Origin: Eriocheir sinensis
Taxonomy: Eukaryota; Arthropoda; Malacostraca; Decapoda; Varunidae
Reading direction: 5' to 3'
DNA length: 64,000 bases
Assembly (NCBI RefSeq): GCF_024679095.1
Contig: NC_066544.1
Span: 510,493 to 574,492, forward strand
Under the pieces are notes generated by a model, which worked only from the letters and a program-made list of their open reading frames with translations, ran no database searches and was not told the DNA's origin. A program made the position numbers and the translations under genes. Every line of letters begins with the position of its first letter. Within the stretch, counting starts at the first letter, position 1. This document shows, piece after piece, positions 7,785 through 56,129 of the stretch.

Positions 7785-8500
7785 CAAGGCTCTGCACGTG
7801 TATTTGATTCATCATCTCACACACACACACTCGACAAAAATGCAGGCTTGACACTTCCAGGCTGTAAACACAAAAGTAGCCAACCCAGACTACCACCCAA
7901 TACTGCTGTCCCCCAACTGCATTACTATCCCCACTTTGCCCTTTCACGGGCGGCAGTAACATTACCTTTTCCTGTTCTTACCATCTAATATTGATGACAG
8001 TTATCAAATAAAATCCCCACTGCAATTTGAACAAATAACCATCCTTATATCTGTAAAAGTGACACATTCAGAATGAAAATTGTAAGAATGAGCTAATAAC
8101 AGAATTTGGTTTCCTACATTTACTGCAAATTAAAAAATCATAAAATGTGGAAGGCTTGGTATGCCTTAAATTTAGTAAAAGAACAGGAAAAGGTGACATA
8201 GTCCCTGCTTTGAAGCACTTTGCCAGGTGACTTCTCATCTGATCCTGAATAAAATTTTGCTGATCAGGAGCCATTCCAAAAGCAAGACATGTTGCAAAAG
8301 CAATAGCAAACAAGCCACAATCAGAAGCACCAAATTGCTGCTTGACACTTGGACATATTACTCTGATGTTTTGACTGCTACTGTTTAATAAGGCTAACTG
8401 AAAATTAAATTTAGCATTGCTCTTCATCCCACTGACCGACAAACTGTCAAAGAGTTTAATGGTGTTATAGACAAGAGGAAAAGTCAGTATTTAAAACTCA

Positions 8501-11073
8501 TTGAGGCATTTCTTGTTAAAAGTTGGTAACAAGTGTTTTTAACCTAATTTGGGTATGCTGAATCCGAATCTGCTTGTTACCACGCTGGTAAATGCTTTAT
8601 AAGGGCTCAAAATTGCAATTCAAAATGGCCACCAAAATCATGCTAATTTGAGGTTCGCATTTTTGAAATTTCATTCTTAGACTGAAAATATGTTAACAGA
8701 TAAGGCAATTAATGTATTCAAAAGAACTTCCACATGCCTAAGACCAACTGAGTTGATATCAAGCAAAACAAACATAGCAGCACCCCACCAGAGGCCAAAA
8801 TCCAAGATGGCCGCCATCAAACTTAAACAAGGCATTACTCTTGTCCTATATGCGCTACAAACACGTTCTTGATGTCTATATGCATGTTTCTAATAGCAAG
8901 GAATCCAACTAGATGGTCCTATCCAATACAAAACATACTTGAGGTCAAACAGGATGAACAAATCCAAGATGGCCACCACTAAAACTCCAATTTGTATATG
9001 TGGTTCAACACTACCCAGGCACTTTATCTTGGTGTCTAAATGTATCTTCTTTATTAAAGGGTACCAAGTCGCAACATAATGTAGTATAGTCTTTATCTCA
9101 TAAAATGTAGTAAAACATATAATCCTGTACAATTGAAATCTAATCAACAATTACCCCTACCAAGTTTGAAAGCGGCAAACATTTGTTTTCACAATACATG
9201 TAGATTTAATTTCATATTAAACATGATAAAAAACAGATAGTACTGATATTAACTATTTCTAGCACGGCAAACATATTGGGTGATACCAGAATTAGATATG
9301 ATTTGATGTTACTGCTTTCCATGAGTTTTCTTTCAGGTCATCCATAAAATTGTTGGATTATCTGTGGCTTTAATTAAGCTGTTGATCTTACTCAATAGGT
9401 AATAAATGCATGTACAGTGTACATTGTACACTAACACGTTGTTTCTCTAGTTACAGTTAAAACATTAGTTACTAAGTTATAAGTTACTAAGTTACTAAGA
9501 AGAAGTGCAATGTTCTGACCAAACGAAAGAGCTGGGTAGTTTGAGAGCCAAACACGAAGAGGCCGACACACGGGTTATACTCCACTGCCTGCATGCTGAA
9601 TCACAAACTATTGTTGTGTCTGCTCGCGACACCGACGTATTTGTCCTCCTGGTGGCACATTTTCATAAGTTTGACTGTTCTTATTTGTGGATGAAAGCAG
9701 GCACATCAAAGAAACATAAATACGTTCCAGTCCACACTGTATGCAGTGAACTATCGTTTTCTCAGTCTGTCTCACTGGCATTGCTTCCTTTCCATGCGCT
9801 CACAGGATGTGACACCGTGTCATTTCTGGCAGGACACAGTAAAAAAACAGCATGGAAAGTGTTCAAGGAACAACACCATCTGTTGGTGGGTCTTGGCAAT
9901 GGTGAACTCAATGATGACAAGATTAAGTCAGCTGAGAAATTCGTTTGCCGCATATATGGCAGTGAAGAGGATGACATTGATAAAGCCAGAGTCATATCAT
10001 TCACAGGATCACGCTCCATGCAAGTACTCCCGCCCAGCAGCGATGCTCTACGATTGCATGTTCACAGAGTCCACTACCAAGCTTCGGTTTGGCGACAAGC
10101 ACACTGCCCACATCCAAACATACCTGAACCTACAGCACATGGCTGGAACCTGGTGGATGGAAAGCTCATTCCAACACTGACATCTCTTCCAGCAGTTCTC
10201 GAGAGCTGCTTAGAAGTGGTGTCATGTTCATGTACCACACGTTGCCAAACATTAAGATGCAAGTGTCGCAAATCAAAACTGTTGTGCACTGGAGCCTGCA
10301 AATGCGTACACACTCTGGATTCTTGCATGAACATACAAGACTAGTATAGAATACCAGCCTCCAGTTTACTTTCATTTCAATTACGTGTTTCTCTAATTTG
10401 CAAACCTATGACTAAATCAATATATTTCATTCATAAAAATGTTATTCTGAATGTACTTGGCATGGTGGTGTTTTTTTTTTATTTTAATAAAGACAACTAG
10501 CTTTGTTGTTGTCAACAAGTAGCCATAGTCATATAGTTTTGGCTTACCTGATGTTGGAAAAGGCAATTTACGGTTTAATGTTAGTGGTAACCATCTTGGA
10601 TGTGTTCCTCCCATTTGACCCCAAGTATGTTTTGTTTTGGATATAAGTTATGTAAGACCATCTAGTTGGATTCCTTGCTATTAGAAACCTACGTATAGAC
10701 ACCAAGAACAAGTTTGTAGCGCATATAGTACAAGAGATATGCCTTGTTTAAGTTTGATGGCGGCCATCTTGGATTTTGGCCTCTGGTGGGGTGCTGCTAT
10801 GTTTGTTTTGCTTGATATCAACTCAGTTGGTCTCAGGCATGTGGAAGTTCTTTTGGATACATTAATTGCCTCATCTGTTAACGTGGTTTCAGTCTAAGAA
10901 TAAAATTTAAAAAATGAGAACCTCAAATTAGCATGATTTTGGTGGCCATTTTGAATTGCGATTTTGAACCCTTATAAAGCATTTACCAGCTTGGTAACAA
11001 GCAGATTTGGATTCAGCATACCCAAATTAGGTTAAAAACACTTGTTACCAACTTTTAACAAGAAATGCCTCAA
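8501..11073 (+). mobile_element. Copy A: TIR element encoding a FEN/XPG-like nuclease fragment
   Basis: The left end TTGAGGCATTTCTTGTTAAA is mirrored at the right end. The arms are about 500 bases each (8501 to about 9010, and about 10560 to 11073) and well conserved. Each arm contains CCAAGATGGCCGCCAT and a second ccaagatgg. The element splits the Ulp1 domain of the Ginger1 gene between its His and Asp residues, so it is younger than Ginger1. Flanking duplication is unclear (aaaactca versus acacttta). The single plus-strand gene is described separately. Confidence 0.8.
9505..10344 (+). CDS. FEN/XPG-like (PIN-fold) nuclease C-terminal half with cysteine-rich tail, copy A
   Basis: A 279-residue open frame without breaks. 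Residues 17-27 read EEADTRVILHC, near residue 40 ARDTDVFVLL, near residue 98 HALTGCDTVSF. The tail carries about ten cysteines in CxC pairs (CSCTTRC, CKCRK, CTGACKC), like a tesmin/CXC DNA-binding domain. The acidic positions match the second half of the FEN1/XPG active site. The N-terminal part with the first two catalytic Asp residues, present in copy C, is absent here unless an upstream exon between 9010 and 9500 is spliced in. It is the only gene between the inverted repeats, which points to a role in mobility. Nuclease activity is inference; the family match among the three copies is direct. Confidence 0.65.
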   Translation: MQCSDQTKELGSLRAKHEEADTRVILHCLHAESQTIVVSARDTDVFVLLVAHFHKFDCSYLWMKAGTSKKHKYVPVHTVCSELSFSQSVSLALLPFHALTGCDTVSFLAGHSKKTAWKVFKEQHHLLVGLGNGELNDDKIKSAEKFVCRIYGSEEDDIDKARVISFTGSRSMQVLPPSSDALRLHVHRVHYQASVWRQAHCPHPNIPEPTAHGWNLVDGKLIPTLTSLPAVLESCLEVVSCSCTTRCQTLRCKCRKSKLLCTGACKCVHTLDSCMNIQD

Positions 11074-11714
11074 ACACTTTATTGAAGGGCCTTTTGAGAT
11101 TTTTCATCCTGACTATTAGGACTGCAGTCAGTATTACTAACTGTTACCCAGTGATTATTATTTACAAGTAATATTTGTATAAATTTTGTTGTGGCACTTT
11201 GGACATGCTTACACGTTTGACTCGCAAAAACTAAAGTACACTGGAGCCCTGATAACGATTGAAAATTATTTCCTAATAAATGTTGGGCATGATCAATATG
11301 CATGTCTGTTAACCAAGTCCCTGGCAAAGAAACTTCACTCGCAGAAACCTTTGGATACTGATGAGCAGGTGCACGGAAATCTGAAAAGGAACGCTGGTAT
11401 TCTTCATCATCTGCCAGAGGTGTAGGTCCAGCAGGGCTGTCCTCTGGATCCCTAAAAAAAATTAAAATCATATGTATTTAGTTATATATAATTTCGTTAC
11501 TCATAGGTACAGTATGTTCTTCTCCATGCAAGCTTTATTTATTCATTGATGTATCACAAGAAAGATCTTAAAATGTGCATTTTTACAATGCTTCTGTGGC
11601 TTCTGAATTATACATTAAAGTAGCCATGCAGCAATCACTATCACCTTGAGTTTGTGAATGCTTCAGTTAACAAAGACATGCAGTGCTAAAGCTGAAAGAA
11701 TTGACAAATTGTGA

Positions 11715-26761: not shown

Positions 26762-27850
26762 ATGAACAAAGACACTCTCGCTAAACACGGCGACACCTTT
26801 AAACAGTTGGTTCGTCCTTCAAGTGAGGAATTGGAGCACGGTGCAGGCACCGATGATCTTAATGTTGTAAATTTACGTTCGGGTGCTACATACTCATCAC
26901 TCCCAAGGGAAAGAGCCCCTTCACCTCCGGGTTCGTCTGAATACTTAACCCCCACTCAGCCGATCAAAATGCCTGACGACCCCCCCCCCGCCCCCTCCTG
27001 CCGGGGCCCCACCCCACTTCCCCCCTCCCCCGATTCGGGTCATTCCAACTCACGCCAGTATTCGGCAGTTCTCTGGCGGCGAGACCGATTTTTCGGCGAG
27101 ACAGTTCCTAGATCTTTGTGAGTCTGCCATCGTAAATTCCTCCATTACGGAAGATCATGATAAAATCGCTTTCATTCGGTCCCGGTTACTTCCAGGCTCG
27201 GGCACTAAATTTGATGCAGTCCTCAGCGTTCGCTTCGGGAGACATTGGAGTAAACTATGAGGTTTTTAAAGGAAATTCATAAAATCTTCGGGGCGGAGTA
27301 AACCAAGCATCGTTTGACAGATGGCACACGGTTGAGTCCCTCCAAAAGAATTCTTCAACAAAGACGATTTGGGACGCCATGATTGAGACAAATCAGCTGG
27401 CGGTTGACTGTGTCAAAAGCCTAGAAGACGCGCTCTAGCTTCCAGGGGGCTGTATGCAAAAGCACCAGGTGAAGACAGCCTTCGAGTTGTTTTTTACTTA
27501 TTTCATATTTCAGAGAAGAACCGCCGTTCTGCCCTTCCTTTGGCCTTCAAACCAAGGGAAGTTGGTTGACTTCGTCTCAGAGTTAGAAGTCAAGATTCAA
27601 AAACACCCTCACCATCAACCCCTCGCAACAGCCGCAGCATTGCAGGCTCAAAGTAAGGCATCTCTCACCTGTAGTTTTTGCAAACAATCAGGACATTCTG
27701 AACATTCTTGCTTCGCGAAATGTAGGGAATCAACACACTCAAGACAGGGCTCTGATAGGAGATCAGGAGGTTACAGGGGCGGGCAACATTCATCACACAG
27801 GAACCCTAGGCCAAACCATCAGCCGAAGGCTTTTGCCTTGTCCACGGGAA
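26762..27850 (+). pseudogene. gag: Retroelement gag (capsid and zinc knuckle), frameshifted
   Basis: An ATG at 26762 opens a frame with an acidic N-terminus and a Pro-rich linker. The frame breaks near 27060. A neighbouring frame to about 27259 reads like a capsid start (F-x-G motif, then FLDLCESAIVNSS). Two further stops follow before 27433. The nucleocapsid part near 27680-27722 has a CCHC zinc knuckle (CSFCKQSGHSEHSC) that would bind genomic RNA. Gag forms the particle in active relatives. At least three breaks make this copy non-functional. Confidence 0.7.
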
Positions 27851-27998
27851 TTGTTTTCATGATTCAGACAGTTGTTCTGCAATACAAAAGCCCAAGGAGG
27901 AACAGAAGTACAAGTCCTCGGCGGACAGTAAACTACACTCCTCCTCTTCTCAGAATAAAAAGACATGACTTCGTGGCAGCCCCAAGGCGTACATCCAA

Positions 27999-29618
27999 GT
28001 GTCCCTTAAAGACGCTACTAATTGGGAGCAACTTGACTCCGTCATTGCCGCCTTGGGACGGACAAACATAATTGCCCTCCCTTGCAAGGTGGGCAAAATT
28101 TCACTCACCTTAGCGGTAGAAACAGGTGCGACAGTCATTGTCATCTCAGACTACGCTTACAGGTCCCTGACACGGCAAGCGAGAGGGGAAAATTGGCCGC
28201 TCCAAGAGAACGACCTGAATGTGGTATACATGACGGGCACCACTTTGGGAATCCTTGGGCGAGTACCACTAGCAGTCAGCTTATTTTTTCATGTATGTCC
28301 CTTTCGAGATTTCTTTTATGTCTCTAGCAGGTTTGCCTTACCTGTGGATGGGATCTTAGGATTAAACGCCATGAAAGACCTGCACATAACCATAAACCCT
28401 GAAAGCAACGCGATCGTGTATCAAGGACGACGCATACAGGGGATGGTAAATCCATCGCCTATGTCACCTGTAATCCCGCCCTCAGAGGGGGAAAATGACC
28501 ATCCCACCACAGACCCAGGGTCTGCCACCGCCCAAGTGTCGCCTCTTACGGTCAAACAACACGAAAACATTACAGACTTGTGGCGGACAGTAACGGCAGT
28601 CGTAGAAGGTCCTCAAATAGTTCCGGATCGTGCTGCAAAACTTGTTAAAATCCGGTTGCCTAACGCCCCTCCAACGGGCAGTGATGTGTGTATCGACGGA
28701 GCTCCTCACATACACCGCGTGACGGTGGAGGTGACTCTCGCGACAGTCAAGGAGGGAGGTTTTGCAGAGGCATTGGTAATAAACACGTCTGGATCCCCTG
28801 TATCCTTAAAACACGGTGTTAGATTATGCCAGTGTCTAGTGTATGGGAGAAATGTCGCCCCGGAACCAGCTGAATACCCTTCAGCCCAAGTCTCAGGCAT
28901 AACCTCGGCGTGTCAGGCTTCTCCCGAACAAGACACAGCTAATTTAGAGGCATTCCTAAAAGTTGCACACTATTCCGAAATTAAGCCAACCTTAGTCCAG
29001 CTACTGGAACATTATAGGGGGGCGCTTGCTCTACCAGGCGAGCCGCTTGGAGTTACGCAGTGTGCTGAACACCACATTAAGTTAAAACCCAATACCAATC
29101 CTGTATATATCAATGCGTACAAGCTCCCCCACAGTCAGAGGGAGGTTGTGCAACAACTTATCTCTGAAATGTTAGAACAAGGTGTCATCAAAGAATCGAA
29201 TTCCCCGTGGAATTCACCCTTGTTTCTGGTTCCAAAGAAAGACGGTTCTTATCATCCTGTGATCGATTTTCGGCGTGTGAACAACGCGACCGTGGATGAT
29301 CATTTTCCGCCTCCCGTTCTTGGAGATCTTCTGATGTGTCTCGATAGAGGAAATAAAGTCTTTACGAGTCTTGATCTGGTCAGTGGCTACTGGCAACTGC
29401 CCATGGCCCCCGAGTCACGTGAAATAACGGCTTTCAGCACGCCTCATGGCCACTATGAGTGGACGAGGATGCCGTTCTGGCTCAAAGGAACTCCCTTGAC
29501 CTTCCAAAGGACAATGAACAGTATTTTTGGTGACTTGCTGGGCAACTCTGTCTATGTATATTTAGACGACATCATCATAGCAAGAAAAGACGTGCATGCA
29601 CACATGGAAACACTATAA
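27999..29618 (+). pseudogene. pol: Retroelement pol, protease and reverse transcriptase part
   Basis: 539 residues in one open frame. The protease region near residues 30-125 shows ETGATVIVIS and DGILGLNAM. The catalytic Asp of the usual D-T/S-G triad is Glu here, which should abolish proteolysis. A spacer of about 200 residues leads to the reverse transcriptase (EQGVIKESNSPWNSP, VIDFRRVN, YLDDIIIA), with the catalytic YLDD box near residue 525. A stop at 29616-29618 interrupts the thumb region, and the next 80 bases contain another stop. Related polyproteins run straight through. The assignment to Gypsy/Metaviridae is firm from motif order. Confidence 0.85.
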
Positions 29619-29698
29619 GCAGTCCTACACAGACTTCAAGAGGTCGGATTAAAGCTCAAAATCACCCAATGTGAATTCTAAAGCCTCGGATCAAGTTC

Positions 29699-31723
29699 TT
29701 GGGGCATGTCATGGACGAATTCGGCATCCACAGTGGACGACAAAATAAAAGGTATTGCCGAGTTCCTCAGCCAACGTCTGCGGACAAGGTTTGGTCTTTC
29801 TTGGGCGTCGCAGGTTATTACAGGCCTTTCATAAAGGACTTCGCAGCACGCGCGAGTCCCCTAACCCATCTATTAAAGAAAGGCGTACCATATCAGTGGC
29901 TCCCAGCTCAACCAACGAGCGTGGAGGATTTAAAGAAAGCTTACACAGGCTCCGGTCCTTGTCTTTCCGGATTTCAAGGACCCTTTCAGCTTTGTACCGA
30001 CGCTTCGGCTAGTGGACTAGGAGCCGCTCTTATGCAAACAGATAAGTCCGGCAAAAAGCATGTGATAGCGTTCGCCAGTCGAGTATTAACAGCTCCGGAA
30101 AAGAACTATTCTGTTACCCACCTAGAGGCTCTTGCCATTGTGTGGGCTCTGAAGCATTTTCGAGACATAATGATGGGGTACAAAATTGTGGTGTATACGG
30201 ACCACGCGGCCATAACTGATCTTTTCAAGGGAAAAAACCTACACGGTCGTCTGGCAAGACGGTTCTTAACGATCCAAGCATACAATCCGGAGATAAAATA
30301 TATCACCGGGAAAACAAATGTGGTCGCAGATGCCTTATCTCGGAATATTCCGATAGGCGCGATTACCACCCCAGAGGTCATCCACAACTTCACTTCCCCT
30401 GAGCCACACACTGCTCAGCGAGACCACTCGGTGTGGAAGAGGTTAATTTACGCCCTAGAGTCGGGAGACGAAACAAACCTTCCTGAATTACCAGTTCCCT
30501 TTTCACAATTCTTCCTGTCAGAGGACAACCTCCTTTGTAGGTCATGGCCAACCAAACCTGTACCTATAGAACAACTGGTCATCCCAGACAAATACGTCCC
30601 CGTGACGCTTAAGCTGGTCCATGACACACCCATTGCGGGTCACCCAGGAAGAGACAAGACGCTATCTGTCACCAGACGTAAATTCTACTGGCCCACATTA
30701 CGGGTTGATGTAGAAAAACATGTCGCACATTGCGTCGTTTGTGCTAAGCACAAGGGGTCCGTCAAAGGGCCAGCACCTATGTTGCAATACCCAATACCAG
30801 AGGCGGCTTGGGATGTTGTTAATATAGACTTATTACAGCTCCCCCAGAGCCAACATGGTTCGCGCTACTTATTGGTGTGCGTCGACCAGTTCTCTAGGTT
30901 TCTAGTTCTAGCGCCTCTCAAGGACAAGACAGCCACACGCGTGGCCCATGCCCTCGTGACTCACGTGTTGTGTCCCCATTCGTCTCCTCGAATTATTTTG
31001 AGTGACAATGGCACCGAGTTTAGGAACACAGTATTGAGCGAAATATGCGCTCAGTTTAACATCACGCAATCCTTCATCACAACTTACCACCCAGCTGCTA
31101 ATGGGTTGGCGGAGAGGGCTAATAGGAAAATCTTACAGGTCCTCAGGCCTATCGTGAACGATCTCCACGATAACTGGGAGGATTGGCTATCGCACATAGC
31201 CGCTTCCATAAATACGTCGGTAAACGACTCTACTGGGAAGTCTCCCTACTACATCTTATATGGGGTGGAGAAACGTCTTCCGTACGACTTCCTAACAAAA
31301 CCACAACAACCTCTCTACAACATTGATAGGTACGCACAACAGCAGATGCATATGTTTTCCAAGATACACTCAGAAGTTAGGTGTACGTTAAAAGCTACGA
31401 AGGTTGAAATGATGTCAAAACAACACAAACAGGCCTTCCCGGTGGAATTAAAAGAGGGTGACACAGTCATGATTAAGGAAGCGGAAAGGATTTCGAAACT
31501 GGGGGCTAAATTTGTGGGTCCTTACCGAGTTGTTCGGAATGTCAGGGGAAATCGGTTCGAGGTTCTCGAGTCAAATAGTGGAGTCAGTCTAGAAGTTCAC
31601 AGTGATCGTCTGAAAGTAATTCCCTTACCTTTGGACCTTGATATTGGTAATTCCCCCTCAGAGTCAAATGTTCAACAAGATAATCCCACCACCCATAGCT
31701 ATAACTTGAGACCACGGGTTTAA
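29699..31723 (+). pseudogene. pol: Retroelement pol, RNase H and integrase part
   Basis: 674 residues open. The end of the reverse-transcriptase connection (SFLGVAGYYRPFIKDFA) is followed by RNase H (CTDASASGLGAAL, THLEALAIVWALK, VYTDHAAITDL, DALSRN). The integrase has an HHCC finger (HDTPIAGHPGRDK to HCVVCAKH) and the D-D-E core in NIDLLQ, SDNGTEF and NGLAERANR, with a GPYRV motif near the C-terminus. This half looks intact, but it is separated from the upstream part by stops and a frame change near 29620-29700. It would have integrated the cDNA copy of the element. Confidence 0.85.
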
Positions 31724-31750
31724 ATACTTCATTCCCACCACTTTCAGATC

Positions 31751-33438
31751 ATGATGTTGCGTTTTCTGATCATCTTGTTGTCCCTCGGCTCCCTGCTTGC
31801 AACGACACCCATCCACCTGAAGCCTGGCGCCCTCACGGCACACATAGGAGAGGTCTTCCTCATAGAAGATGTGCTCCTCGTAAAATATCCATATACTTCC
31901 TTGACCAACACCACAGACACAATCAGGATAGTCTCAGAAAAACTACTCGGCATGGCAGACGCCATACGGGCTACCAAGACTAGGGAATCAAAGGCACCTT
32001 CTAGTACCAACTCTGAATCTTTTTCAACTACTGGAGGATAGGATTCTGTTCTTACGGGGAAAAGTTGATGAGGTAGACATGGATTATAGTTTTCACTCAG
32101 CTCACTCTCGGGTAAAGAGGGGGTTGCTCAACATCGTTGGGTCCGCCTCAAAGTTCCTCTTCGGTACGGCAACCGACGAGGACATACGCGATTTGCGGGA
32201 CCACTACGCTCATGTACTTTCCTTTGCTGCTCGAAATCGCAGGGTAATCAACGCCAATTGTAGAAAACTTGCGCGGTTGCATACTAACATTGAGGAACTG
32301 CTAGAGCAGACATGTAAGATGGTAGAGGTTATCAACATAGTTGTCAAACAGATCAACCAGGTGAATCAGTTTCTCCTCCTAGATCAGGCCTTGCATGTAT
32401 TGGAAAACGTCATTAACTCTGTCGCAACGGCAAATCAGCAGGTTATTAGCTACATGGTTGATGCAGCGCACGGTAGAGTCCCACCTGCCTTGTTCCCTCT
32501 ACACGATTTGAGAACGACTATCCATATCGGCTATCAAAATTATAGCCTAACACCTTTATTCAACCCAGACATGAGTCAATATTTTTACCCCTTGATTGAG
32601 TCCAGCCTCACCCCCGATGCCATAATCATTCATGTTCCATTTCAGACGGCGGACGTGTTTGAGGCACACGAAATTGTCCCGTTCCCTTTTCAGCAAAGGA
32701 CAGTGTGTTAGCCCTGGACACGTCCCTCTCTTGTTCTAATCGCGAAGGATTTCGCTCTGTATTCAACGGTAGCTACTCACTCTTGCAATATTGCAAGGAG
32801 ACGCTCTTCAAGCGATTCTATTGCTCTGCGTCTCTTTGCCTTCCTACCAGTTCGGGAGGGTATGCGAGATCGCCCTCACCCGCGTGAACCCGTCTGACGC
32901 TCTTTCCCTGTGCCCTTACAAGCAGCTACCACCAACACCTGTTTTCCATAAGAACTTTCAGGGTCTGCATTATTTCTATTTCCCTCAGTCCTTCTATGTA
33001 TCAGTCATCTGGCCGGAGGGTACCACTTATCAACGGGTTACTGGTCACTATGCCATAGCGGAAGCATGCTATATCCGCTCCACTAACATAACAACGTACC
33101 CGTCCCGGATCCGTCTGGTTTTCACGGCCAATATTTCCCATCGAGTGTTTCCTCTACGGTCTCTCGATAACATTCACTTCTGCAGCATCTCTTATGTGAC
33201 TAATTCCCTTAATTCATTGTCTTTCGCAAACAAAACAGAGTTTGCGGAAACCCTGGAGGAAACGCTGCCTGAATACTTGCATCTCCCCTACTTGTACCCT
33301 GGATTTTTTGTACCAATGTTTCTGATGTTCGTCAGTCTCGTCGTCATGTGCTACCTTATTAGGAGGAACTCTGTCCTGCACGATTATTTGGTTGTGCAGA
33401 CACGGCGACTGGATGCAAGGAGGCCACTGGCAAGGTAG
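31751..33438 (+). pseudogene. env: Retroelement env, baculovirus-F-like fusion protein, two frame breaks
   Basis: The first open piece (31751-32041) starts with a hydrophobic signal peptide. The second (32079-32711) has an R-x-K-R furin-type site followed by a Gly/Leu-rich fusion-peptide-like stretch and heptad-like helices. The third (32791-33438) has conserved cysteines, N-glycosylation sites and a C-terminal transmembrane segment with a short Arg-rich cytoplasmic tail. This order matches Env of insect errantiviruses and the F protein of baculoviruses, which fuse membranes. The frame changes between the pieces, so no full protein is made. Described only as a decayed genomic copy. Confidence 0.75.
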
Positions 33439-39740: not shown

Positions 39741-40466
39741 AATAGAATAATTAATTTTGTACATTAATATATTGAGTTTCTCACCCCTTTCTTTTCTTGA
39801 CCTTAGACAACACTAATTAGTTGCTAGTATAAAAGTTACTAATGACTATAGTCTGTTCACTTAAGCTAGATTCCTGGCGCCTAGGCAGGTTGGTAATCTT
39901 GCAGCTGATTGGCTGCTCCGCTCTCCCGCTAACACTCTTGTCGGACCACATCTTGCATGCTCGAGTGAGACATGTTTCTTTATTATATGCCATAGCTCAC
40001 CTCATATACGAGCTAGCCAGTTTTGGTTGACACCATCAGACTCAGCAGTGACTGTAGAATCAAGATGTATTCTAAAAACTCGACAAAACAAAAAAGAAAA
40101 TGGTACCCTCCCACCAAAGGAGCGTGTTGCCCACCGAGAGAAACTACACCCCGCCCCGCGATGGACTCAACTCCCAGATGAGAGGGCACGGGGAGTATAC
40201 GGGATGCCACGCACGACAAACACATGGGAAGACTATAGCCCTGCCTCAAGTGGTAAAAGGGCGGCCGCAGGCAACATCACCAGTAGGGCTCCTCTACTAG
40301 TGATACGGGGGGAGAATTTGGTCCTCGAGGTCAGCGGGCATCGAGCCCTATCGAGGTAGGCAAGCTACCAAGGTAGGTGATGCCGCCAACCTCGCTTCAA
40401 GCCCCGTCACCACGACAAGGTGATTCCCCTTCGACGGGTTTTTTGAATGAAAATATGATGCTTCTG
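39741..40466. other. Unassigned sequence
   Basis: The block 40080-40380 is GC-richer with a 110-residue plus-strand open frame, but no motif or codon pattern supports a gene. Confidence 0.4.
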
Positions 40467-40681
40467 TACACCCACATCCAAAAGTTCGTCGACAGTTGCC
40501 GTCAGATATATGTTTCCATACGAGCCACAGATGGCACATTATATCATTTCACAGCTTTAAGAGGGTAACTTCTACTTAATCCATGCACGTATGATACACT
40601 ATACTCTGTGCTCCCTTTGCTGGTTTATGCGGAAACATGTCTGACGGGGACTGTCGACGAACTTTTGATTGTGGATGTACA
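40467..40681. mobile_element. Small inverted-repeat MITE, 215 bp
   Basis: The outer ends TGTACA...CACATCCAAAAGTTCGTCGA and the mirrored tcgacgaacttttgattgtg...tgtaca form arms of about 55 bases. It directly abuts the stop codon end of the nuclease copy B, so it could be an insertion or part of that element's terminus. Confidence 0.6.
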
Positions 40682-42522
40682 TTCATAGTGACTCTGCATT
40701 ATGGTGAATACTTCTGAATTTTACTGATTCACCATCGTCGTCCTCGATATCAGAGTCTGCTGTCTCTGCCTCTGGTTCTTCACTGGCCAGGTTGTTGCAG
40801 CTTTGCAATCTGCACATGTCTGTACACTTTAAGCCATTGGTCAGGCAGGTGCATGTAGGTAATTTGCAGAAACGCATACACTTGTAGGAGAGCAGCTGCA
40901 GCACGGCATCTGGTGCAGGAGAACCTCGCAACCACACGATAGCTAGTGTACCATCATCTTCTGATGTCCAACCACAGTCATTGGGATCTGGGACGAAGGG
41001 CTGGGGCTCTAGACATCTCCTCCAGATGGTAGCTTGATAGTTTGCACGGAGTGAATGCATATACAGGCAGTCCTCACAAAGGGGGAGATGACTTGATTCA
41101 ACTTTTCCACGTCTGGCCCAAAATAATATGTAACGAAGCATGTTCACACTGGCTGTATGAGTAGATAGTATGTACATGTGGTATGTGATATCCTGCAGTA
41201 TATGAAAGAGTTCCGCAGATAACTCCCACGAACGCTCCTGGTATTTCTTGTTAGACTGCATCTGTTTTAAGGTTGTCACCTTTCCTCTGCCAGCAAATGA
41301 ATGACTGTATCACAACCTGTGATTGCATGCATACCAATAAATGCATCACGGACACTTCCTCCCAGTGCATGACTTAACTTGGTGATGTCAAGGTATCTTG
41401 TCCTGTTCTTTGTTTCACACTTGTGGTACATGTGGTATTGGAGTTGCTCCTTACCCCTAGGCACAGAACTGTGACAACTGTATCCTCAGCAGTGATGACT
41501 GTAGACTTGTATCCTAATTGTGCTGGATGAATAGTATGCAATAGCAGACGTGTGTCAGCTTTTTCTTGTGAGGATTTCAGCTCTGCGACCTCTTCTACCC
41601 GTTCTTTGGTGAGTTTGAAGCAGAGTTGCTCACAAGTAACATCCATTACCTTGTCTTCAAGTTTATTCCTCAGTTTCGACCCCTTACATTCACCCACCAA
41701 GAACTTGATCAAGCTGGTTTTATTAGAGAGGCTACAGAGCAACATCATTCACTGCTGAATAAGGTGCTCATAGGCAATGTTCCTGAACTGGGGTCCTGTG
41801 GATGCTCCTCTGTTGGTGCTTTCTACATCTTTGATGGATGTCTCCTTATAACATCAAAGATAACATCAATACGATGACTCTGGGAACGTTCATGAAGAAC
41901 ACGGGACAGAGCTGATTCTGCCAGCAGAGAGAAGGTCTTGTTATCCCCCTTCAATTTGTGGATCATGCTCATCCCATCAGTAAGAGTTGCTGAATGCTCT
42001 CCAATGACTTATGCCGGGCATACCTTGTTATCCAGCCCTCTTGCCAAAGTGGCTTTGGCTTTATTGTTTTTTCGAAGAGATCCATCAGCATTGGTGAGTG
42101 CCAATGGCAAAGGCCCTAGGGGGTGAGACAAGACCTCTCTCATGTGCAGTTGTCTGCTTTCTGCAGCAAGGATCATCTGCCCAAACAGCTTCCTGTCAGC
42201 CCTTAGGACCACTTCCTTGGTTCTGCTGCCGTTGATTGTCTTCTTTCTAATGTCAAAAAGTTATCAATTTCTTCTTTGCCAATCTGTCGTGGAACTGTGT
42301 AGATGGGGCATCTGCTTCCAGTTGAGCCTGTTTGAAAGTCTGGTATGCCTCTTCATCTATCCTGTGTGCATTCAGGAGGTCCTTTACAACGCCTGCTGGT
42401 GCCGCGGTAGATGTTGATAGACCGACAAGCTCTTCATTGTCAAGATTAAAAGGGTTCAACCAGTTGCTTCCATTAACTGAACAAGAGAATGTACATCAGC
42501 CTCATATCTCCTGATCCTTGAC

Positions 42523-42847
42523 TTTTTTTTTTTTTTTATGTCGCGGCCTCTTGCGCCGGTAGGCTTCTTCCCGGTGGGGCCTGATGGTCGGCCCAGCCCG
42601 TTCTGGCGCAGGCGAGTGTTTATAGTGGCGCCATCTTGCATTGGCTCATGCTGCCCTCCCGGAGCTCATCTTTAATCCTAGAATCCAGAGTCCGGGTTGA
42701 TAGGTGGTCTTCTGGACAACATGTGGGTAGTTTTAAGCTACTCGGCGGCGGCTGAAAAATCCCAGCTTGGTGGCACCGGGCGGGGATTGAACTCGCGTCC
42801 TCCTGAACGCGGCGCCGTCACTCTGTCGACTCAGCCACCGCCTCCCG
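42523..42847 (-). mobile_element. tRNA-derived SINE inside nuclease copy B
   Basis: Same family as 22562-22980: head cgggaggcggtggctgagtc with B-box-like gcgagttcaatccccg, shared body ttaaaactacccacatg, and a poly-A-like tail at 42523-42537. It has only one copy of the 35-bp 3' unit. It sits in the coding region between SDIRHPDL and RRYEADVHSL and so post-dates decay or inactivated the copy. Confidence 0.85.
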
Positions 42848-43057
42848 AAATGGAGATCTGGATGCCTGATGTCTGATTCATGCTGACCTACCATGTCTCT
42901 TAGTTGTCTCAGGTATCTACTGCGGTACTTGGAGGTTAGATAGTATCGAGCAACAGCACCTCCTTTGAGGCTCAAACTTCGAGTGCCCCCTGATGTCTGG
43001 GTATATTTGTTGATGGTATCTTCTATTGTCTGGTCTACCGGGATCTTTCCAAAAAAA

Positions 43058-43437
43058 AATTAGACCTGGGACTATTTGTTACCAGGCTACCAGTGAAGGT
43101 AAAATACGTGCCAATCGCAGTGGACGGGTTAACAGATGGAAAAGTTCCGTCGGATTGGAAACTAGCAAATGTCACACCAATTTTCAAAAAGGGGGCCAAG
43201 TCTCATCCAGGAAACTATCGACCAATTAGCCTGACATCGACTGTTTGTAAGTTAATGGAGACTATCATTCGCGACAATATGGTGAAATTCTTCGAAGAAA
43301 ATAATATAATAAATAATTCGCAACATGGCTTCCGTAGTAAACGTTCGTGTTTAACTAACTTACTTGATTTTTTTCATTATATTTTTGAGGTGTTCGATGA
43401 AAGCAGATTAGTAGATATCATATATCTGGATCCATTT
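43058..43437 (+). mobile_element. CR1-type LINE fragment inside nuclease copy B
   Basis: The plus strand reads [46 protein letters not shown] and RLVDIIYLD, the N-terminal palm motifs of a CR1/Jockey reverse transcriptase. It is open over 380 bases and truncated on both sides. Confidence 0.8.
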
Positions 43438-43989
43438 GCGGCAACAAGTTCTCTGCTCAATAAGGCGAAAACTTTTTTGATCAACGTTTTTAGTTGCTGC
43501 ATTGCGAATTCTGTCATCTGCACGTAATATGACACACTGGATGAGTGGTTCCCTTGTTTTTTGTCCTTTCAGGTATTTGCTGGATTTATTACAGAAGATA
43601 CAGATACTTTCATACACCCTTGAAGTACTTGGTGCATCAAGAGTTGATCTTTTGGAACTGACCTCTGCAGGGTGTACAGTGGTATCTTTAGCAGATTTAT
43701 AGAGGATAGCATCCAGAGACTTTTTCATGATGAAAAGACTACGACACTTACGATGATACAGTACGTGTGGTACGTGTCCATGTTCAAGGACTTTGGCTAT
43801 TTCCAAAATACCAGCATGTTGTCTGATTTCTGCTGCCAAAAGCAAAGTGTTGCAAGAGTCCAAATCTTTTGGTGACACTAGAAAGTCACAGCTATCATCA
43901 GAGCAATGGAAGATACAGTCACTTCTTAGACGCTTCCTAGGCAGCTGTGGCTTGGTATCTTTGTCATGATTTGGTGAGTCCATCATGTG

Positions 43990-44500
43990 CTTCACAATTG
44001 CAATATGCTATGTTTAGCATGCACCTGCAATGTACAAAGGGTTGTCCCTAGTGATAAACTGTGCAGAGCTTTAACTGTTGATAGTACCTGCATAACAGTT
44101 TGTACTGAAATATATCAAAATAACCTGATCAAAGTCAGCATCACACCTTAAGTGTATGAGATTAAGGAACACCATCCAAGAGCAGGTCCTTTGCTGCTTG
44201 GCACCATGAGAGCCCATTTGTCACCAGAGTGTGCTTCAGGATTGCAACACACTAGGTCTAGCATACACCTGCAATGTACAAAGGGTAATACCTGGTGATA
44301 AACGGTGCAAAGCTTTAACTGCTGATAGTACCTGCAATATATTAACAGTTTGTAGTAAAATATACAAAAATAACTTGATTAAAGTCAGCATCACACCTGA
44401 AGCATACAAGATTGAGAGGTAATTAGGGAGCACCATTCAAGAGTAGGTCTTTTGCAGCTTGGCACCATGCAAGTCCACTTGTCACCAGAGCTACGACTTC
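43990..44500. repeat. Two-copy tandem duplication, ~240-bp period
   Basis: The sequence from tgcttcacaattgcaa through ctgcaatgtacaaaggg recurs at 44229. Both copies continue to aaagtcagcatcacacct and tggcaccatg. It lies just upstream of the N-terminus of copy B. Confidence 0.75.
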
Positions 44501-44641: not shown

Positions 44642-47233
44642 CTCTTTAGGGCATGCCGGTTTATATTTTGTCCCACCTTTTTACGACGTCTAGTAGCAAA
44701 GTGGGATATAAAACGTCCCACCTACAAAGACTTCAATGTAAGAGAAGCACAGAGGTTTAACTTTAAATCCTAACCCACCTCATAGAAGTCTCGGAGTGTC
44801 CTCCGTGAGCATGCGCAAGTAGGTCTCGGGGCAGAGATGCTTTTCAGGGTGGCAGAGCACCACGTGGCACCACGTGACGAGGCTTGCACGTACGAGTTGA
44901 TACATTTTGGCCTGTAATTCCCTTACTTCTCTAAGATAAGTTTCATATTGTGTTTTACTTTCTTGTTGATGAAAATATTGTGTTGTGAAGTGAAATATGT
45001 TTAATGTCACAAATATTGGGAATATAATACATTTTATGGTGGTACATATAATATCCCACCATGCAAGTTGTCCAAATCCCATTTTCTTTGGTGAAGACAA
45101 AAAAGAAAATTGCATTTACTTTACTATACATTTTGCCCTTACGTATGATATTGTTTCAATCAGCTACCTAATCATCATATGTGATCATCATTACAGGTAA
45201 AATGCCAAGATGAAAAAAGCTGGATGAGGAAGAAATATCTCTTCAATTTACAGAGTTTCCGTCAGACCCTGAATCAGATGTTGACAATGAAGATGAAGAT
45301 GACACTGAAGTCTTGGATGAAGAAGATATACAAGGAGGCTACATCACTTCAGATGATGATGAAGATGAAGAACAGAATGTTCAATCCAATGATATTCATG
45401 ATAGAGATTCGGGAAGGATACAATGGAGGAAAATATGGAAGCCAACTCCATCTGGGGAATTTACTTCACAAACAGATCCTAGTCGAGAAGTTTTGGATCT
45501 AGAAAGCCCAACTCCATTTGACATTTGTTATAAACTTATATCCAAGGAAATCATTGAAAATATAGTTTTTCAAACAAATTTGTATGCTCAGCAAAAAGGA
45601 AAGAAATATACACCAACAGATGAAAATGAAATAATGACTTTCATTGGAATAAACTTACTTATGGGAATAGTCAAACTCCCAAGCTACCGTGATTACTGGA
45701 GTACCAATCAGTGCTTACATAATGATTTCATATGCAAGCTAATGACAGTGAACCACTTTGGGTGGCGTTTGGGTAATGTCCACCTGAATGACAAATCTTT
45801 GATGCCAGACAAAGGTAGTCCTGGCTATGATAAGCTTTACAAGATTCGTCCATTCCTAAAATTGATGCAGGAAAATTTTGAAAGAAACTTTCACCCTAGT
45901 TGTAGTGTTGCTGTGGATGAGTCTATGATTAAATTCAAAGGACGTTCTATGAAGCAATACCTCCCAAAGAAGCCAGTGAAAAGAGGGTATAAGGTTTGGA
46001 TGCTGGCAGACAAATCAGGATATTGCTTGAAATTTGATGTGTATACTGGAAAAAAAAAAAAAAGTTACGAAAGGTCTTGGTGCAAAAGTAGTTACTTTAC
46101 TGGTAAAAGGTCTTGAAGAAAAGGAACACAAAGTTTACTCTGATAACTATTTCACAAATGTACATTTGATGAAAGACTTAAAAGAAAAAGGAATAAATGC
46201 TTGTGGAACCGTGAAACCCTCGCGAAAAGACCTGCCAACATTAATTTCTAGCAAGAAAATGAATCGTGGAGACTCTGAAACTCTCACAAGTAGCACCGGA
46301 ATTGGTGCAACCAAATAGCGTGACAAGAATGATGTATTCATACTGACAAATTTTCATTATCCCAGTGAAATGTCTGAAGTAAACAGAAGACAAAAGGATG
46401 GCACAAAATGTTTGTATCCCTGCCCTATTTGTGTCACTGATTACAAAAAGAACATGAACTCAGTAGACAAGTTTGATCAGCTAATGGCAAGTTATAAAAT
46501 AGATCGCCGCAGTAAGAAATAGTGGCATCGCATATTTTTCTATTTCCTGGATGCTGCTGTAGTAATTCATACATCATATTCAGGACATTGAAAAACAACA
46601 TGCCACTGAAAGAATTCAAGATCCATTGTGTAGAAGGTCTTCTGGCAACCAGGTTAGTACAGAGGAAGAGATCAGCCACACATGAGTCTCCTTTGGAGAT
46701 CAAGAAATCAAAACCTACGGTTCCAATGGAAATACGGAGAAAGGAATCAAGTCATCAACCAAAACGTTCCACTCGTAGGCGGTGTGCTCTATGTAGCACA
46801 AAAATCAAAGTACGTACTGATTGGGCCTGCTCTGTATGCGAGGTGCCTCTTTGTCTGGAAAAAAATAAGGAGTGTTTCCAGAAATATCATGCTTGAAAAT
46901 GAAAAAAATGTCTAGAATAAAAAACATGAATTCACTGTTATTTACGGTAAACATTTTGTATTTTTATTTTTTCTGATCAATTTTAACAGCCCAAGCAAAA
47001 TAAAATGTATTATTGATTATTTAGGAATTGAGAGGAAAAATTCTAACAAGTAACTTATTTTTGTGAGGGAGGGGAATAATGTACCTAACCAGCATGGTGG
47101 GATAAAAAATGTATCACCTCATTAAGCTTAATTATGCATATTAATCAATGGTATTGCAATTCCTAACCTTTTTGTACCTTCAATGCTCTTGATTGATTAT
47201 GATGTTTTGTAGAAAAATAATAAAAGCAAAGAG
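44642..47233 (+). mobile_element. piggyBac-type transposon, 2.6 kb
   Basis: TTAA lies at both edges (44638-44641 and 47234-47237), with CTCTTT / AAAGAG as short terminal inverted repeats. Subterminal tgggataWaaa motifs recur at both ends (gtgggatataaaacgtccca near 44700, tggtgggataaaaaatgta near 47097). The length is typical of piggyBac. The interior carries one decayed plus-strand transposase. Confidence 0.85.
45202..46896 (+). pseudogene. piggyBac transposase, few breaks
   Basis: An acidic N-terminus follows an ATG at 45202, with a TGA three codons later. The long open part 45313-46050 has FIGINLLMGIVKLPSYRDYW and the first catalytic Asp in VAVDESMIKFKGRS, then YLPKKPVKRGYKVWMLAD. A frameshift lies at a run of 12 A near 46050. 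The next frame has YSDNYFTNVHLM (second Asp) and NSVDKFDQLMASYKIDRR (third Asp) with two stops. The C-terminal cysteine-rich finger (RCALCSTKIKVRTDW, CSVCEVPLC) is intact and ends at 46896. The enzyme excises and inserts at TTAA. Damage is limited, so inactivation is recent or one break is an assembly error at the poly-A run. Confidence 0.85.
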
Positions 47234-52438: not shown

Positions 52439-55400
52439 ACCTTGTTATTGGTGGAAGTGTATTGTTTCTTCATGGTTTCTTACTCACATGGGTCTATAGA
52501 GAAATTCTGGCTTGGTTGCCGGAGCGGCAACCTTGGGGAATTTTGCTAATTTGCATAAATCCAAGATGGCCGCCATTGGCGAAAGTGGAAAATATCTTTT
52601 CAACAAATTCACTTATAATAGCATGTGATACCTGTTTTCCACATAAATTTGAGGAGAGGAATCGATTTCTGAAGTTGGTTGTGTGCTTTGAGATCAAATT
52701 CATGGTCAAAGGTCAAATTCAACCATTTTAAAAATACTGATTTTTTTTTTATGCTGAATTTATCATGAGTGGCAAGTCTTGGGTTCGGGCCATGCGTGCA
52801 TTCCGGATGGTTTCAACTGCTCTCCTGAGCAAGTTTCTCTCCACTGGCCCCAAAACATTCCAGGAATTAAGTGACTACCTTGAAATGTGTCGACAACACC
52901 CAACTGGCAGGCATTGGGTAGATAACCTGATAAAGCCTACTCTACTTGTTCATCATCTGATTCGTAGTGAAAGGGAGGGAGATTTCCTACTGCAGCAGCT
53001 CACACTCCAGCGTATGCTCCCCTACTTCTTCGTTGCTGGCCATCACCATTATGCCCGCTACATCACCCATCACCTTCTCGAGATGCGCCACCTTCTGCCA
53101 CCTGAAGCTAAATCGGAGCCCATGTCAGGTGCTTTTATGCCGTCACCAGGAAGGTGGCTGGAATAGTGTTAGCTCTGACCAGTTTGGTGAGCAAACTGCC
53201 ATTCGAATTGGCAAAGGTGGTCTTAAGGGTATGACCCTTTCTCCAGAGATGGTAGAGGAATGGATTAATTCTTTTCCTGTCACTGCATACCTCTCAGACA
53301 CCATGGCGCACATCTACCCTGACCCCCCAGTCAAGGAAAATGAGGACCAAGCTGCACCAAGTACTACAAAGACTGGACCACGTCACAAGGAGGAAGGGCG
53401 GAAGAGGAGGGAGATGGATGCAGATGACAGACGTCGAATCTTGCTCGAGCTGTCTAAAATGTCTCACCCACTGGAAAATCAGTCGCCACACCTGTATAAT
53501 ATCGCCAATGGCAGATTCGCCCCCCCTGAAGCTGAGGTGAATATTGCCGAATCAGTCGATATAGGCGAGAGAATGGCTGCTCAGTTCCAGACATCCCTCC
53601 CCAATGGATTCCATGAACCCATCTCTAGCTGCATCAAGACTATGCAACACATTAAGAAAGGTATGAAAGTAGGAGACAAGACAATCTTTGAGCTGGAAAC
53701 TATCTTCTTCAGGCTGCTGACAGTCGGACAGCAACGCCAGATGAAGCTAGCAACCATTTTCCAATATGAGCTATGCCCAATACCCCCCTCACTCATCGAC
53801 GAGTATGGTTGTTTGAGAAAAGGTAGTAAAGCTCCACTAGCTCACAAACTCTGTATACAGGCACAACGACCATCACCCCCTGATGTTACCATCGTTGATG
53901 CAAGCCAGCTCCTCTACCACATTGTTTGGACATCAAGAGGTGATGCATCACATATAGTTAAGTCCATCAAGACAAGATTATCCTCTCTCCATGGCAAGAA
54001 AGTGTTAGTCTTCGACAAGTATCACAATGTGTCTGCAAAGGACCATGAGCGTATGCGACGTGCTGGCCTTGGCGCCATCAATTATGACTTGACCACCAAC
54101 ACACCACTACCCAGTCGAGACGCTATCATGAGGAATAAGCACAACAAGTTGCAGCTATCAAAAGTTCTTAGTGCCTACAGCTTTGGTGAAGAAGTCACTG
54201 TGGAGAGCGCTAGCAAGGGTGTGTTCAACCATGATGAAGCAGACATAACAATGATGTCATACCTCCTCAAGACTGCTCAATGTGACACGGAAGTGATTCG
54301 CATTCTCTCAGATGACACTGATGTCTTTGTACTGCTTGTTTACTGGGTGTACCTAAACAAGATCCAGGCCACAGTACAAATGGAGCGATGGAATGGAGCC
54401 ATTTGGGACATCAATGCCACCTGTGAACAACTTGGCCCCAAGTGCTTGCAGATCCTGGGAATGCACTATCTTACCGGTTCAGATACCACCTCATACCTGT
54501 ATGGCAAGGGGAAAGTGTCAGCCCTGAAGACCCTGAGAGCTGGTGACTTCCCAGGCCTGTACTCAGTCTTGGGTGAGCGTGATGCCACCCATGCACAGCT
54601 CATGGAAGCAGGACAGACGTTCTTCTGTGCTCTATATGGTCAACAGCAGGGGACATCGATGAATGTGGCGAGGTACCAGATTTACACAAAGAAGTTTGGT
54701 AAGCGGATCAAGATAATGTCGCTACCACCAACAGAGCATAATCTGTTCCTGCACATCTTACGTGCTCATCTGCAGACCATACTTGCAAAATCTGCTGACC
54801 AGGAAGCTCCACCTGAACTTGACATCACGAAGTATGGGTGGAAAATCAAAGATGGCATCCCAGGACCAACAACCTCCAATCAACCCCCAGGACCCCAAGA
54901 ACTTATGGATGTAGTGCGATGCAGCTGTAAGGCTGTTATGAAAGTCTGCAGCACTGAACGTTGCAGTTGTCACCATGGGAAAATGTCATGCACTGTGTAC
55001 TGTTCTTGTGAATGTAGTGATGCTTGCTTTAATCCATTTAAGACAGGGGAGGAAGACCAAGATGAAGAGGATGAGGAAAGACAAGAAGATATGGAAGATG
55101 GCAAAGAAACTGGACATCTTGATCATGTTGTCGGTACTGATGATGAATGGGAATAATCGATGTTAACCAAATATATAAAAAAATGTTTCAGCATCACTCT
55201 GAAAATGTCATTAGCATTATGTAATTTGATACTTAACAATAAATGACTTTCAACTTGATCACTGATCCTGAATTTGATCCCAAATCACAAAATGTACCTG
55301 AGAAATCAATTCCTCTGGTCAATTATTTTCATCCCCTCAGTAGTCTAAAATGGCATTCAACTTGACCTTTGACTATGAATTTGACCTCAAATCACACAAA

Positions 55401-55639
55401 CGACCTCAGAAATCGATTCCTCACCTCAAATTTATATGGGAAAGAGGTATAACACACTATTGTAAGTTAAATGGTTGAAAAGTTATTTTCTACTTCCGCC
55501 AATGGCGGCCATCTTGGATTTATGCAAATTAGCGGAGTTCCCCAAGGTTGCCGCTCCGGCAACCAAGCTAGAATTTCTCAATAGACCCATGTGAGTAAGA
55601 ATCCATGAAAAAACAATACACTTCCAGCAAAAACAAGGT
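52439..55639 (+). mobile_element. Copy C: TIR element encoding a FEN/XPG-like nuclease, near complete
   Basis: The left end ACCTTGTTATTGGTGGAAGT is mirrored by the right end (ACCTTGTTTTTGCTGGAAGT on the reverse strand). The arms are about 310 bases (52439-52750 and 55330-55639), well conserved over the outer 140. Both arms hold aaatccaagatggccgccat and a small palindrome gttgccggagcggcaac. Only one gene lies between them. Flanks are gattgggt and taaagtac; no convincing target duplication is visible. Length (3.2 kb), TIRs and a single gene are the hallmarks of an autonomous DNA transposon. Confidence 0.82.
52765..55156 (+). pseudogene. FEN/XPG-like (PIN-fold) nuclease with CXC-type tail, copy C, one frameshift
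   Basis: The frame opens at ATG 52765 and changes frame once near 53130; the remainder is open to TAA 55154-55156, about 800 residues in all. Conserved acids, with nucleotide positions: Asp in IVDASQ (53897), Asp in VLVFDKY (54014) followed by K..E...RR, Glu/Asp in HDEADI (54236/54242), two Asp in DDTDVFVLL (54314/54320) and Asp in LTGSDT (54482) followed by GKGK. FEN1 has the same series (D34, D86, E158/E160, D179/D181, D233). The spacings after the second Asp agree closely (74, 26 and 54 residues here; about 72, 21 and 52 in FEN1). The C-terminus has a Cys-rich CXC-like block (54914-55040) and an acidic tail. The fold call is inference from motif order and spacing. Confidence 0.7.
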
Positions 55640-55680: not shown

Positions 55681-56070
<390 letters not shown>

Positions 56071-56129
56071 CAGATTTACATAGAAAATCAGACCACACAG
56101 ACCCATGTGGTCCAGACTAAGGGGTCCAC

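What the first reader, a model, noticed from the sequence alone, without database searches (positions are those of the whole stretch)
52439..55639. TIR transposon whose only gene looks like a FEN1/XPG-type flap nuclease
Long inverted repeats enclose a single ~800-residue gene. Its conserved acidic residues mirror all seven FEN1/XPG active-site acids: Asp, Asp, Glu+Asp, Asp+Asp, Asp. Spacings after the second one are 74, 26 and 54 residues, against about 72, 21 and 52 in FEN1. A GKGK motif sits where FEN1 has its helix-turn-helix, and a CXC-like zinc tail follows. No DDE, tyrosine, serine or HUH catalytic set is visible. A cut-and-paste element moved by a structure-specific 5' nuclease would be a new mobility mechanism. 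I know of no named superfamily with this design.
Basis: partly seen in the sequence, partly recalled or inferred. Interest (0 to 1): 0.92.

Follow-up and report, generated by a model that had tools for sequence, protein, structure and literature searches.

The report
Truncated Academ-type transposon with nuclease domain
This is a crippled copy of a known kind of animal jumping gene that carries a DNA-trimming nuclease fused to its ordinary transposase; the copy lost the front half holding most of the transposase, so it looked as if the nuclease alone moved it.

The parts
52439..52740 (+). left terminal inverted repeat
55337..55639 (-). right terminal inverted repeat
52762..53130 (+). remnant of the transposase core, residues 684-806 of P0131 (119 of 123 identical); begins about 20 nt after the left TIR, i.e. 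the inner edge of an internal deletion of 683 codons plus whatever preceded them
53118..53139 (+). zone of the frameshift that splits the gene into two frames
53132..55156 (+). rest of the gene: end of the transposase core, linker, XPG-like nuclease, Cys tail (649 of 674 residues identical to P0131)
53189..53191 (+). codon of the presumed third catalytic residue (Glu) of the DDE triad, in DQFGEQ
53825..54829 (+). XPG/FEN1/EXO1-like nuclease domain (model residues 232-566)
53897..54484 (+). span of the seven XPG-type acids: D 53897, D 54014, E 54236, D 54242, D 54314, D 54320, D 54482 (first base of each codon)
54503..54514 (+). GKGK at the position of the helix-two-turn-helix
54920..55027 (+). 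CXC-like cysteine tail (ten Cys)
52562..52575 (+). subterminal motif CAAGATGGCCGCCA, also in the TIRs of the related element at 8494-11080
55503..55516 (-). the same subterminal motif in the right TIR
52514..52532 (+). 8-bp palindrome (3-nt loop) inside the left TIR
55546..55564 (-). the same palindrome inside the right TIR
55241..55322 (+). subterminal duplicate of the inner end of the right TIR (77% to 55348-55429)
8494..11080 (+). related element B: TIR arms of 428 nt, 94% complementary; holds only the last part of the XPG domain and the tail (9502-10332; 51% identical to P0180 residues 1256-1533)
40686..44007 (-). related decayed copy C: broken pieces matching profile positions 5-135, 805-864 (weak, E 0.01) and 961-1438; no match to the part with the first two DDE acids; no TIR pair seen around it

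Best explanation
The element is a non-autonomous, internally deleted and frameshifted copy of an Academ-type (AcademX-like) cut-and-paste DNA transposon of an animal genome. The full-length relative is one protein of about 1480 aa: an N-terminal Cys/His-rich part, a presumed RNase H-type DDE transposase core interrupted by a helical insertion (P0131 residues D441, D623, E827), a linker, an XPG/EXO1-like nuclease domain, and a CXC-like Cys tail. Inferred steps: the DDE core cuts and joins at the TIRs; the XPG-like domain trims flaps, hairpins or gaps made during excision or target joining; the Cys tail and/or N-terminal part bind the TIRs (the motif CAARATGGCCRCCA is a candidate site); and the window copy, with two recognisable TIRs but no complete transposase, could have been moved only by protein supplied in trans. 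Shown: TIRs, deletion relative to the longer relative, frameshift, XPG fold of the model, co-conservation of both acid sets on one chain. Not shown: any activity, the RNase H fold by a search of its own, target-site duplications, TIRs around the full-length relative.
Against: Searches were seeded with the N-terminal half, so that long relatives contain it is partly a result of the search; only the conservation of single columns, and the XPG part, are free of that. In one search, seeded with the window's part and limited to 400-1275 aa, 98 of the 120 listed proteins do not reach the D623 position, 16 reach it but not D441, and 6 reach D441. No named Academ sequence was compared; Kojima 2020, the lineage paper, is not held. 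No exact 3-4 bp target-site duplication is seen at either TIR element. The RNase H fold of the N-terminal half was not searched alone; in whole-chain searches the rows that stand out are all from the XPG domain. Pfam's DUF6589 match is below its cut-off for the window piece (22 against 27 bits); 14 of 32 relatives match it at E 0.1 or better. No Pfam XPG model matched the window protein (E up to 10) or those 32 relatives (E up to 0.1). The DNA around P0131 was not seen, so its TIRs are unknown.
Confidence: 0.92

Rival explanations
1. One reading: an autonomous element moved by a stand-alone XPG/FEN1-type nuclease, without DDE.
For: The window copy has TIRs and an XPG fold with all seven acids and lacks the first two DDE acids. 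All three copies recognised in the window lack the part with those two acids but keep XPG sequence. Most listed proteins are short (98 of 120 lack the D623 position), though that search excluded proteins over 1275 aa.
Against: A 96% identical longer relative carries the D..D..E set on the same chain, and the set is conserved in long relatives. The window ORF starts inside the transposase core and is frameshifted. Starts of the listed relatives are scattered over the protein, with a small cluster of five at the near-invariant M978, rather than at one separate gene start.
Confidence: 0.03
2. A related but distinct DDE+XPG superfamily, not Academ in the published sense.
For: No direct comparison with a named Academ reference was possible; target-site duplications of 3-4 bp were not confirmed. 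DDE-plus-nuclease designs arise elsewhere: KolobokP has a His-Me finger nuclease (PMC9587614, title and passage).
Against: In the passages read, AcademX is the nuclease-bearing lineage that fits; KolobokP's nuclease is of another fold; the expected length agrees with Academ.
Confidence: 0.05
3. A host XPG-like gene that lies by chance between, or was captured by, TIRs of an unrelated transposon.
For: None beyond the missing DDE part in this copy.
Against: Residues 684-806 of the transposase core sit directly beside the left TIR, and related element B has the same subterminal motif in its TIRs and a piece of the same gene.
Confidence: 0.01

Closest known systems
Academ superfamily, AcademX lineage (DNA transposons)
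   Same: TIRs, presumed DDE transposase, nuclease encoded by the element, length above 5 kb for full-length elements; relatives in many animals
   Different: this copy is deleted for the first two DDE acids and frameshifted; target-site duplication not confirmed; no reference sequence compared
AcademH lineage
   Same: same superfamily
   Different: encodes a helicase instead of a nuclease and makes 9-10 bp duplications (PMC10045372 passage)
KolobokP
   Same: animal DNA transposon with a DDD/E transposase plus a nuclease (PMC9587614, title and one passage)
   Different: the nuclease is a His-Me finger homing endonuclease; Kolobok duplicates TTAA
EXO1 / FEN1 / XPG (Rad2) nucleases
   Same: fold and the seven metal-binding acids, helix-two-turn-helix position
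   Different: 13-18% identity over the aligned part for the EXO1 and FEN1 rows; fused to a transposase; first spacing is 39 residues (FEN1 about 52, recalled); activity untested
Pfam DUF6589 (PF20231)
   Same: matches the transposase-core region; P0206 passes the curated cut-off (27.7 against 27 bits, one of three relatives scanned), and 15 of 105 proteins carry it as a precomputed domain
   Different: the window piece itself is below the cut-off

Membership tests
Academ / AcademX | terminal inverted repeats | tested here: met
   284-304 nt, 88-89%
Academ / AcademX | DDE transposase residues on the element's protein | tested here: met
   in relatives of 1300 aa or more D441 86/86, D623 85/86, E827 86/86 (two of the three searches behind this set were seeded with that half); the window copy keeps only the Glu
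Academ / AcademX | RNase H fold of the transposase core | tested here: inconclusive
   strand/helix order in the P0014 model fits but the domain was not searched alone; in whole-chain searches only the XPG domain stands out
Academ / AcademX | XPG-type nuclease fused to the transposase | tested here: met
Academ / AcademX | 3 or 4 bp target-site duplications | tested here: inconclusive
   no exact duplication at 52439/55639 or near 8494/11080; flanks printed were compared by eye
Academ / AcademX | sequence match to a named Academ reference | not tested
   no such reference held; Kojima 2020 not held
XPG/FEN1 nuclease superfamily | PIN-like XPG fold | tested here: met
   (a predicted model)
XPG/FEN1 nuclease superfamily | seven active-site acids | tested here: met
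   order and spacing, and the EXO1 profile alignment over part of them
XPG/FEN1 nuclease superfamily | match to a curated XPG sequence family | tested here: not met
   no Pfam XPG model among the matches (E up to 10) or (E up to 0.1); the relation shows in fold and in a weak EXO1 profile match only
XPG/FEN1 nuclease superfamily | structure-specific cleavage | not testable with these tools
   needs a biochemical assay

The most novel reading that the evidence does not exclude
Deletion derivatives of this family tend to lose the DDE core while keeping XPG sequence (three of three copies recognised in this window; two of them with TIRs), and the resulting XPG-Cys-tail proteins act in trans, as regulators or as helpers that process TIR ends for full-length copies.
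Probability: 0.03. Interest if true: 0.5.

Novelty: new member of a known kind. Interest (0 to 1): 0.15.

Why it matters
It removes a claimed new mobility mechanism and shows how an internal deletion can make a fused DDE-nuclease transposon look nuclease-only. What stays open and worth testing is what the XPG-like domain does in these elements: its acids are about as strictly kept as the DDE acids in 86 long relatives, so it is presumably needed. None of the titles and abstract beginnings listed in my searches is about a test of it; I read passages of four papers only.

Tried and rejected
Stand-alone nuclease transposon: rejected (P0131 and the other long relatives). Host gene capture: rejected (transposase remnant beside the left TIR). 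Conserved separate XPG gene: starts of the 120 listed proteins are scattered, except five at M978 (that search was limited to 400-1275 aa, so full-length proteins were excluded). The TIR palindrome as a nuclease substrate: not pursued, because a stem of 8 or more with a loop of up to 12 occurs in 123 of 2000 base shuffles of the left TIR and the TIRs of element B have none. Prokaryotic or viral origin: scans of genome contigs (88 pattern matches, 0 confirmed) and viral contigs (28 matches, 0 confirmed) gave no relative. PDB sequence search with profiles gave weak EXO1 matches (best E 0.0035 for A1; 0.015 for A2) beside an unrelated designed repeat protein at 0.012 and 0.017. The Pfam match Ssol_1539-like_2nd around the GKGK stretch is below its cut-off (18.4 against 27 bits). 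In two relatives (P0135, P0139) the alignment runs on to 52675, inside the left TIR and across stop codons (frames); I take this as over-extension, as P0131 itself starts matching at 52762. A weak profile match inside element B at 9085-9237 (E 0.4) was not counted. The whole-chain Foldseek and VIA-align listings for the P0014 model (50 rows each) show no transposase; that says nothing about the fold of the N-terminal half. No tRNA or Rfam match in the window. Paper searches: 'Academ' with 'XPG' and 'transposon' matched mostly the word 'academic'; DUF6589 is in no held paper. One search scored only the 7988 candidates sharing most words. The species of the window is unknown.

Full report
What is there. 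Arms of 284 nt without gaps (89% complementary), or about 303 nt with gaps (88.2%), lie at 52439-52740 and 55337-55639. Between them are two ORFs in different frames on the + strand (52765-53166 and 52967-55156), of which 52762-53130 and 53132-55153 align to relatives.

The 'no DDE' call is an artefact of a deletion. A search with the main frame, limited by its length to proteins of about 400-1275 aa, gave 134 relatives (120 listed); the longer ones had an extra N-terminal part. A second search from residues 1-470 of P0014 gave 85 relatives; 30 proteins of 1300 aa or more were then in hand. P0131 (1481 aa) is identical at 119 of 123 and 649 of 674 residues to the two window pieces, aligned from its residue 684 on; residue 684 lies about 20 nt past the left TIR's inner end. 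A third search from residues 480-1000 of the distant relative P0180 gave 105. I aligned all 86 proteins of at least 1300 aa among the 284 in hand: D441 in 86, D444 in 84, D623 in 85, E827 in 86; XPG acids D1063 85, D1102 86, E1176 83, D1178 84, D1202 85, D1204 84, D1258 85; 82 of 86 have an acid at D441, D623 and all seven XPG sites; the four others are P0212, P0250, P0276 and P0277. The second and third searches were seeded with the N-terminal half, so the presence of that half in long proteins is partly selected; the column conservation and the XPG part are not. Of the 120 listed proteins, 6 reach D441, 16 reach only D623 and 98 neither. The window keeps E827 and all seven XPG acids.

The core looks like an RNase H-type DDE domain with a helical insertion: in the P0014 model (pLDDT 84.4, 73 sequences) the first D (68) is in strand 63-76, the second D (247) follows strand 242-246, and E (450) is in helix 445-460 (positions). 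This is an inference from the order of elements; the domain could not be predicted or searched alone. Pfam's DUF6589 covers part of this region: 14 of 32 relatives match at E 0.1 or better; of three further long relatives scanned, P0206 passes the curated cut-off and P0245 and P0284 do not; 15 of the 105 proteins carry it as a precomputed domain.

Which known kind. PMC9587614 (one passage) lists Academ among superfamilies with a DDD/E transposase. PMC10045372 (passages) says that AcademX makes 3-4 bp and AcademH 9-10 bp duplications and relates this to the nuclease and helicase they encode. PMC10294476 (passages) gives a mean length of 5565 bp for curated Academ consensus sequences of bivalves. 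PMC10799480 (passages) speaks of AcademH helicases only. That the AcademX nuclease is of XPG type is recalled; the primary paper is not held. Adding the missing codons gives at least 5250 bp for this family. Source names of relatives include Pinctada, Aldrovandia, Synaphobranchus, Myxine, Solemya, Porites, Apostichopus, Coilia, Aquatica, Harmonia, Dryococelus, Nymphon and Nucella; several are labelled 'Tesmin/TSO1-like CXC domain-containing'.

Related copies in the window. Element B (8494-11080) has 428-nt TIR arms (94%) and one frame matching about the last 280 residues (51% to P0180). Copy C (44007-40686, - strand) matches profile positions 5-135, 805-864 (weakly, E 0.01) and 961-1438 in broken pieces, with no match to the stretch holding the first two DDE acids; no TIR pair around it was found, only a 56-nt inverted repeat just beyond one end (40465-40681). 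All seven sites within one mismatch of CAARATGGCCRCCA in the window lie in the TIRs of A and B, all pointing inward (0.1 expected), a candidate binding site.

What is not settled. Target-site duplications: the bases outside the mapped TIR ends do not match exactly for A or B (flanks, by eye). The own genome could not be searched. Whether P0131 lies inside these TIRs is not known. How the XPG domain acts in transposition is unknown; end trimming or flap removal is inference.

Noticed in passing
8494-11080: Second TIR element of the same kind, only distantly related (fragment 51% to P0180, 29% to P0131), also without the DDE part.
   Followed up: partly
40686-44007: Third, decayed copy on the - strand, with the N-terminal Cys-rich part and pieces of the XPG part but no match to the stretch with the first two DDE acids.
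   Followed up: partly
8621, 8803, 8965, 10758, 10940, 52562, 55503: CAARATGGCCRCCA occurs seven times in the window, only in the TIRs of the two diverged elements, always pointing inward. It resembles the YY1 consensus (recalled).
   Followed up: partly
52514-52532 and 55546-55564: Perfect 8-bp palindrome with a 3-nt loop inside both TIRs; stems like it arise in 123 of 2000 base shuffles of the left TIR.
   Followed up: partly
27454-33438: Gypsy-like provirus with reverse transcriptase, RNase H, integrase and a frame matching the baculovirus F protein family. Described only.
   Followed up: no
20174-21232 and 45313-46116: Tc1/mariner-like (DDE_3) and piggyBac-like (DDE_Tnp_1_7) transposase frames.
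   Followed up: no
55751-56076: A long TC run and a long GA run, 120-180 nt apart, form near-perfect inverted repeats just right of the element.
   Followed up: no
P0001, P0126 and P0153: Proteins of this animal transposon family are filed under archaeal and bacterial MAGs (Nitrososphaerales, Candidatus Thiodiazotropha, Sedimenticola), probably host DNA in the bins.
   Followed up: no
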